The notes under the pieces are model-generated. The model was not told the origin of the DNA. It worked only from the letters and a program-made list of their open reading frames with translations, and did no database searches. Shown here one piece after another: positions 4,172-4,228 of a stretch of 64,000 nt of DNA (positions within the stretch are counted from its first letter, which is position 1; each line of letters starts with the position of its first letter). This DNA comes from Rhodothermales bacterium (GTDB lineage Bacteria > Bacteroidota > Rhodothermia > Rhodothermales > JANQRZ01), in contig JANQRZ010000004.1 of NCBI GenBank assembly GCA_028284265.1, positions 62,001 through 126,000 of the forward strand. Reading direction: 5' to 3'. A program made the translations under genes and the position numbers.

Positions 4172-4211
4172 GGTAACACTACGGTAATACGCCGCTAACA
4201 GCGGGGTAATG
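4172..4211 (+). promoter_or_regulatory. Four tandem 11-bp direct repeats GSTAAYR-N4 (response-regulator / Pho-box-like array)
   Basis: GGTAACA(4172)-CTAC-GGTAATA(4183)-CGCC-GCTAACA(4194)-GCGG-GGTAATG(4205); exact 11-bp spacing. Confidence 0.7.
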
Positions 4212-4220
4212 TCGGCGTTC

Positions 4221-4228
4221 TAAGTTTC
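4221..4228 (+). promoter_or_regulatory. Possible Bacteroidota-type -7 element (TAAGTTTC)
   Basis: Resembles TAnnTTTG; begins 16 bp after the start of the last 11-bp repeat; 59 bp upstream of the CDS start. Confidence 0.35.

What the first reader, a model, noticed from the sequence alone, without database searches (positions are those of the whole stretch)
4172..4228. Four perfect-period 11-bp direct repeats directly upstream of a TonB receptor promoter: Pho-box-like array
The sequence shows GGTAACA-N4-GGTAATA-N4-GCTAACA-N4-GGTAATG at exactly 11-bp spacing (4172, 4183, 4194, 4205), ending just before a TAnnTTTG-like -7 element (TAAGTTTC, 4221) where a -33 element would normally sit. Tandem 11-bp direct repeats are the hallmark of OmpR/PhoB-family operators (E. 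coli Pho box, B. subtilis TTAACA-N5, cyanobacterial SphR boxes). The half-site seen here (GSTAAYR) may be the Rhodothermota version. That it responds to phosphate is inference.
Basis: partly seen in the sequence, partly recalled or inferred. Interest (0 to 1): 0.85.

Follow-up and report, generated by a model that had tools for sequence, protein, structure and literature searches.

The report
Phosphate-starvation switch (Pho box array)
Four short repeats spaced exactly 11 letters apart in front of an outer-membrane uptake gene form the likely docking array of the bacterium's phosphate-starvation regulator, and the same array sits in front of the same uptake gene and other phosphate genes in related bacteria across several phyla.

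Summary
Nothing of that quality occurs elsewhere in the window or in 30 simulations. The Pho-box reading is well supported. A second array (8832-8871, same +16 geometry) precedes plcP-agt, the phosphate-stress lipid-renovation genes. A third precedes the genome's Na/Pi cotransporter. In six related genomes the composite pattern (two units + N9 + TAnnTT, at most 1 mismatch) gives 11 hits against 0 control hits; 10 lie directly upstream of the TonB receptor, plcP or nptA. Upstream of receptor orthologs, TAAY cores peak at spacings 11, 22 and 33 in Rhodothermota, Ignavibacteria, KSB1 and Zixibacteria; arrays also precede pst operons of relatives. phoB-phoR and/or pst genes flank the receptor in several phyla. 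The regulator is most likely the RR/HK pair on contig C23. Binding and phosphate response are not shown experimentally. The kind is known: Riemerella PhoP favours TTTAACA, and Flavobacterium induces a receptor/lipoprotein pair of the same type under low phosphate. It is a new member of a known kind with an unusually well-defined promoter geometry.

The parts
4172..4178 (+). Pho-box unit 1, GGTAACA
   Evidence: conserved in sister genome G001
4183..4189 (+). Pho-box unit 2, GGTAATA
4194..4200 (+). Pho-box unit 3, GCTAACA
4205..4211 (+). Pho-box unit 4 (promoter-proximal), GGTAATG, 16 bp upstream of the -7 element
4221..4228 (+). -7 promoter element TAAGTTTC (TAnnTTTG type); inferred TSS near 4233
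   Evidence: the TAnnTTTG score peaks at offset +16 in orthologs; TSS position inferred from the -12 to -5 placement given in PMC9723704
4287..7166 (+). TonB-dependent receptor (PF13715 + PF07715 + PF00593/PF14905), target of the array
7239..8729 (+). surface lipoprotein, right-handed parallel beta-helix; conserved partner of the receptor (same type as Flavobacterium FII)
   Evidence: AlphaFold2 pLDDT 90, PDB fold matches weak, pectate-lyase type; found beside the receptor in 76 of 80 loci
8832..8871 (+). second Pho-box array: GATAACA 8832, GGTGTTA 8843, GGTAATG 8854, GTTCACA 8865
8881..8888 (+). -7 element TACTCTGG of the plcP promoter, +16 from the last unit
8934..9746 (+). PlcP-type metallophosphoesterase (LpxH superfamily but far below the LpxH cut-off)
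   Evidence: identification as PlcP by context and family knowledge (PMC4796936)
9782..10933 (+). glycosyltransferase PF13528, Agt-like position downstream of plcP
2693..3973 (-). MFS transporter, divergent from the receptor and conserved in that place in many Rhodothermota; not shown to be controlled by the array

Best explanation
The array is a four-unit Pho box: the operator to which phosphorylated PhoB-family response regulator dimers bind head-to-tail under phosphate limitation. Units 3 and 4 cover about -39 to -22 of the promoter, where the -33 element of a Bacteroidota-type promoter would lie. They end at a fixed distance (16 bp from the start of the last unit) from the -7 element TAnnTTTG, so bound PhoB replaces the missing -33 contact and recruits RNA polymerase (class II activation). 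It switches on the TonB receptor and, probably in the same transcript, the beta-helix lipoprotein. Weaker copies with the same geometry switch on plcP-agt (phospholipid-to-glycolipid exchange) and the unlinked Na/Pi cotransporter. Shown: sequence, spacing, conservation, target set. Inferred: PhoB binding (regulator most likely C23:353250-353921 with its kinase), activation, phosphate as signal, substrate of the receptor.
For: Exact 11-bp array, unique in the window. Same box and same +16 distance at plcP and nptA. In the own genome the composite pattern has only two perfect hits, the receptor and nptA. In six relatives 10 of 11 hits at up to 1 mismatch lie upstream of receptor, plcP or nptA, with 0 reversed-pattern control hits. 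Spacing spectra upstream of receptor orthologs: d=11: 34, d=22: 20, d=33: 9, shuffle mean 0.06; plcP d=11: 8 against 0.08. Cross-phylum peaks at 11/22/33. 53 of 76 loci carry at least 2 units, with the -7 score peaking at +16. Pho-type genes 13 of 28 against 3 of 268 control genes, two of the three being mis-called pst/receptor genes. pst operons of relatives carry arrays of up to 5 units. phoB is directly upstream of the receptor in L206, and phoB-phoR-pstSCAB-phoU-receptor-lipoprotein are consecutive in L223. The own C23 regulator is 64% identical to the L206 PhoB, and its DNA-binding domain matches E. coli PhoB 1gxp at E 1.3e-20. In F. johnsoniae a receptor with the same Pfam set, a beta-helix-type lipoprotein (both in the phoBR cluster) and PlcP are strongly induced by Pi depletion (PMC8115612).
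Against: No binding or expression data for this organism. The C23 regulator scores below the NCBIfam PhoB cut-off (238.7 against 296.2 bits) and its kinase below the PhoR cut-offs. No array was found upstream of that phoB gene. Several families of the order (f12, f15) show weak or no arrays at plcP and none at nptA, and many receptor orthologs show only two units. The plcP array here is degenerate. The nptA box is seen in only 3 of 22 nptA loci.
Confidence: 0.92

Rival explanations
1. The array is an operator for another OmpR-family regulator (for example the C20 or C17 pair) that responds to a signal other than phosphate.
For: 11-bp direct repeats are shared by many OmpR-family regulators. 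Three other OmpR-family pairs in this genome score nearly as high against PhoB models. In Latescibacteria-type loci the pst-linked regulator resembles the C17 protein more.
Against: All recurrent targets are phosphate genes (receptor beside phoBR/pst, plcP, nptA, pstS). The receptor-linked regulators of Rhodothermota and KSB1 are closest to the C23 protein. In Latescibacteria, where the linked regulator is of another type, the TAAY array is absent.
Confidence: 0.06
2. The repeats are a chance or low-complexity feature.
For: Individual 7-mers are short.
Against: Zero of 30 simulations reach the score; conservation in register across phyla; control gene promoters 3 of 268.
Confidence: 0.01
3. 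The array controls the divergent MFS transporter rather than, or as well as, the receptor.
For: The intergenic region is shared, and the MFS gene is conserved there in many Rhodothermota.
Against: Unit orientation and the fixed +16 to a -7 element point to the receptor. The arrays persist where no MFS gene is adjacent (Ignavibacteria, KSB1).
Confidence: 0.05

Closest known systems
E. coli Pho box (PhoB operator)
   Same: Tandem direct repeats of 11 bp (7 conserved + 4 variable; definition from PMC4415409), promoter-proximal unit at a fixed distance from the -10/-7 element (from general knowledge for E. coli), phosphate genes downstream.
   Different: Core is TAAY rather than TGTCA (no TGTCA spacing signal here). 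The promoter element is TAnnTTTG, not TATAAT. Arrays of up to 5-6 units occur.
Riemerella anatipestifer PhoP motif (DAP-seq and EMSA, PMC9603813)
   Same: Same broad group of bacteria; most conserved nucleotides TTTAACA, close to the units found here; bound in vitro at a TonB-receptor promoter.
   Different: Reported as a motif similar to ArcA, without an 11-bp array, a promoter distance or a phosphate-gene target set in the passages read here; here the position two before TAA is mostly G or C.
Flavobacterium johnsoniae phoBR cluster with receptor Fjoh_0545 and lipoprotein FII Fjoh_0546, and PlcP Fjoh_4577 (PMC8115612)
   Same: Receptor with PF07715/PF13715/PF14905, pectin-lyase-fold lipoprotein next to it, PlcP and a glycosyltransferase, all strongly induced by Pi depletion.
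   Different: No cis-element was described in the paper (no 'Pho box' and no 'motif' in its text). In the window phoBR is unlinked and plcP-agt is linked. Direct sequence comparison with the Fjoh proteins could not be made here.
plcP-agt operons of marine bacteria with Pho boxes (PMC4796936)
   Same: plcP followed by a glycosyltransferase, with putative Pho boxes upstream.
   Different: Here the box has the TAAY core and the Bacteroidota-type -7 element, and the glycosyltransferase is of the PF13528 family.

Membership tests
Pho box (PhoB/PhoP-family operator) | At least two direct repeats of 11 bp (7 conserved + 4 less conserved) | tested here: met
Pho box (PhoB/PhoP-family operator) | Located upstream of phosphate-acquisition or phosphate-stress genes, recurrently | tested here: met
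   receptor, plcP, nptA, pst operons
Pho box (PhoB/PhoP-family operator) | Fixed helical register to the core promoter, replacing the -35/-33 element | tested here: met
   +16 from the last unit
Pho box (PhoB/PhoP-family operator) | A PhoB/PhoR pair in the genome | tested here: inconclusive
   C23 RR/HK pair has PhoB/PhoR-like best hits but is below the equivalog cut-offs; supported by context in relatives
Pho box (PhoB/PhoP-family operator) | Regulator binds it, and transcription responds to phosphate | not testable with these tools
   needs EMSA, footprinting or RNA-seq
E. coli-type Pho box sequence | CTGTCAT core | tested here: not met
   core is TAAY; the consensus is known to vary between species (PMC4415409)
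Flavobacterium-type phosphate-induced receptor/FII lipoprotein pair | Receptor with CarboxypepD_reg + Plug + barrel, directly followed by a beta-helix lipoprotein | tested here: met
Flavobacterium-type phosphate-induced receptor/FII lipoprotein pair | Sequence homology to Fjoh_0545/Fjoh_0546 and induction by Pi depletion | not tested
   the Fjoh sequences were not retrieved; no expression data for this genome
PlcP | Phospholipase C activity on membrane phospholipids under Pi stress | not testable with these tools
   family placement rests and the plcP-agt gene order

The most novel reading that the evidence does not exclude
A receptor plus beta-helix lipoprotein pair under a conserved TAAY 11-bp Pho box is an ancestral outer-membrane arm of the phosphate-starvation response shared by Rhodothermota, Ignavibacteria, KSB1, Zixibacteria and Cytophagales, importing phosphate or a phosphorylated substrate. 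In some lineages that lost PstSCAB, such as this genus, the box was newly attached to the Na/Pi cotransporter.
Probability: 0.5. Interest if true: 0.68.

Novelty: new member of a known kind. Interest (0 to 1): 0.52.

Why it matters
It gives a precise, searchable operator (array of [GC]NTAA[CT][AG]N4, N9 after the last unit, TAnnTTTG) for the phosphate response of a large group of bacteria in which no such box was described in the papers read here. It places a widespread but uncharacterised receptor/lipoprotein pair in that response, which makes its substrate a concrete question to test.

Tried and rejected
PstS in the own genome: none. Pattern GTWACA-N5-TWACA: no hit in the own genome. Other own-genome 11-bp hits (C14 between ribD and ribE, C7, C13, C15, C16, C4, C11): no -7 element at +16 or no phosphate gene; regarded as chance or unresolved. 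The regulator on C17 was considered as PhoB: its locus carries no convincing box, and its closest relatives among the linked regulators come from Latescibacteria-type loci without TAAY arrays. First attempt to score pstS promoters failed because the operon often starts with a porin gene about 1.2 kb upstream; corrected. nptA as a conserved target across the order: rejected, only the genus and G010. Latescibacteria first appeared to lack boxes; L166 shows GTCACA/GTTACA/GTGACG at 11 bp, a lead only.

Full report
OBSERVATION. The four units lie where stated: GGTAACA 4172, GGTAATA 4183, GCTAACA 4194, GGTAATG 4205, with TAAGTTTC at 4221 and the receptor ATG at 4287. A sequence-blind score (pairwise identity among four 7-mers at a given period) is 32/42 here. 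No other place in the window reaches 32 at any period from 8 to 14, and none of 30 Markov simulations reached it at period 11. In the whole 3.69-Mb genome three perfect consecutive GSTAAYR units occur only here.

SURROUNDINGS. The receptor (4287-7166; PF13715, PF07715, PF00593/PF14905) is followed by a lipoprotein (7239-8729) without a family in the libraries scanned. The search lists it under PF28492, with its nearest named relatives in Rhodothermaceae and Rubricoccaceae. Its model is a confident parallel beta-helix (pLDDT 90) with weak similarity to pectate-lyase-type folds. Next come a metallophosphoesterase of PlcP type (8934-9746) and a PF13528 glycosyltransferase (9782-10933), that is, the plcP-agt arrangement known from phosphate-stress lipid renovation (PMC4796936). 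A second, weaker 11-bp array precedes plcP: GATAACA 8832, GGTGTTA 8843, GGTAATG 8854, GTTCACA 8865, then TACTCTGG at 8881.

OWN GENOME. The search with GTAAYR-N4-GSTAAYR found a further pair of units at C10:149276, about 70 bp before a Na/Pi cotransporter gene (PF02690). In all three promoters (receptor, plcP, nptA) the start of the last unit lies exactly 16 bp before the TA of the -7 element. A composite pattern (two units, N9, TAnnTT) has only two perfect hits in the genome, the receptor and nptA. plcP appears at 2 mismatches, together with four hits that look random and a reversed-pattern control of 5. PstS is absent.

RELATIVES. Upstream of 30 receptor orthologs in the order, TAA[CT][AG] pairs occur 34 times at 11 bp, 20 at 22 and 9 at 33, against a shuffle mean of 0.06 per distance. 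Upstream of plcP there are 8 at 11 and 4 at 22, against 0.08. The opposite strand shows almost none. By a stricter weight-matrix criterion 20 of 30 receptor loci (10 of 12 families) and 9 of 30 plcP loci carry at least two units, and the TAnnTTTG score peaks at offset +16 (4.5 against about 1.8). These genomes are related, so the counts are not independent; the family and phylum spread is the relevant measure. Pst operons of relatives carry arrays of up to five units, either upstream of a porin-pstS-phoU operon or directly upstream of pstS. A control of 268 other genes in the same stretches gave 3 with an 11-bp pair, two of them in fact a receptor and a pstS that escaped the label, against 13 of 28 phosphate-type genes; no other spacing stood out. 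A scan of six relatives with the composite pattern at up to 1 mismatch gave 11 hits and 0 control hits; 10 of the 11 are directly upstream of the receptor, plcP or nptA (coordinates compared). The eleventh is unresolved.

OTHER PHYLA. A collection scan with the receptor alignment returned 80 loci from Rhodothermota, Ignavibacteria, KSB1, Zixibacteria, Calditrichota, Latescibacteria, Kapabacteria and Cytophagales. TAAY cores peak at 11/22/33 in Rhodothermota (23/17/8), Ignavibacteria (29/17/10), Zixibacteria and KSB1. 53 of 76 loci with enough upstream sequence have at least two units, and the -7 score again peaks at +16 (4.4 against about 2.1). In Cytophagales (Pontibacter, Rufibacter) the lipoprotein gene comes first, and dense arrays with TAC[TC]TTTG stand in front of it. 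The lipoprotein accompanies the receptor in 76 of 80 loci, and phoB, phoR, pstSCAB or phoU lie within 10 kb in many. In L223 the order is phoB-phoR-pstSCAB-phoU-receptor-lipoprotein. In L206 (a Rhodothermales MAG) phoB stands directly upstream of the receptor with the array between them.

REGULATOR. Among the four OmpR-type regulator/kinase pairs examined, C23:353250-353921 is the best candidate PhoB. It is 64% identical to the receptor-linked PhoB of L206 and 50% to the pst-linked PhoB of L223. Its DNA-binding domain aligns with E. coli PhoB of entry 1gxp (E 1.3e-20), and it carries the DRTVDVHVRKIREKL recognition helix. It scores below the PhoB equivalog cut-off (238.7 against 296.2 bits), so the name rests on context.

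MECHANISM. Shown here: the array, its exact register to the promoter, its conservation and its target set. Established knowledge (PMC4415409): PhoB-family domains bind 11-bp direct repeats head-to-tail. Inferred: under low phosphate the phosphorylated C23 regulator fills units 1-4, takes the place of the -33 contact (units 3-4 cover about -39 to -22, taking the -7 box at -12 to -5 as in PMC9723704), and activates transcription of the receptor and lipoprotein; plcP-agt and nptA are co-activated from weaker boxes.

KNOWN OR NEW. The kind is known. Riemerella PhoP binds TTTAACA-type sites, including one at a TonB receptor (PMC9603813). Flavobacterium johnsoniae strongly induces a receptor and a pectin-lyase-fold lipoprotein in its phoBR cluster, and PlcP, under phosphate depletion, and its FI/FII lipoproteins resemble Caulobacter ElpS (PMC8115612; ElpS in PMC2996285). 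I found no description of this box for Rhodothermota or the other phyla in the library searched, which covers only open-licence papers. I therefore file it as a new member of a known kind.

EVOLUTIONARY LEAD. The box at nptA occurs only in the window's genus (G000, G001) and in G010, and all three lack PstS. G002, of the same family and with PstS, has no box there. Several other PstS-less genomes also lack it, so this is suggestive only.

Noticed in passing
window 2693-3973 (-): An MFS transporter gene divergent from the receptor is conserved in that position in many Rhodothermota; it might serve the phosphate response (for example glycolipid export) but nothing shows it.
   Followed up: partly
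G000:C10:149276-149307 (L022:8276-8310): Pho box in front of the Na/Pi cotransporter only in genomes without PstS (G000, G001, G010); absent in G002, which has PstS. Possible rewiring after loss of Pst.
   Followed up: partly
G000:C14:52374-52413 (-), between ribD and ribE (L003:1491-1529): Three-unit array (ACTAACG, GGTAACA, GGTAACG at 11 bp) on the strand opposite to the rib genes, without a -7 element at +16; unexplained.
   Followed up: partly
G000:C15:124868-124884 (-) (L017): TTAACAATTTGGTAATG, a good two-unit box by sequence, with no recognisable phosphate gene next to it.
   Followed up: partly
G000:C8:203176-203715 (-) (L021:9635-10345): An orphan PhoU-domain gene with no Pst genes around it.
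   Followed up: partly
L166 (Latescibacteria) about 130-165 bp upstream of the receptor match; L176: 11-bp repeats with another core (GTCACA/GTTACA/GTGACG in L166); in L176 GTAACA/TGTCAAA followed by TTATAAT, an E. coli-like arrangement, in loci whose linked regulator is of a different type. Box core and regulator may co-vary.
   Followed up: no
L212, L219, L226, L228 (Pontibacter, Rufibacter): Gene order lipoprotein-receptor with long TAAY/TAAA arrays ending shortly before TAC[TC]TTTG (16 bp in L212); extends the box to Cytophagales.
   Followed up: partly
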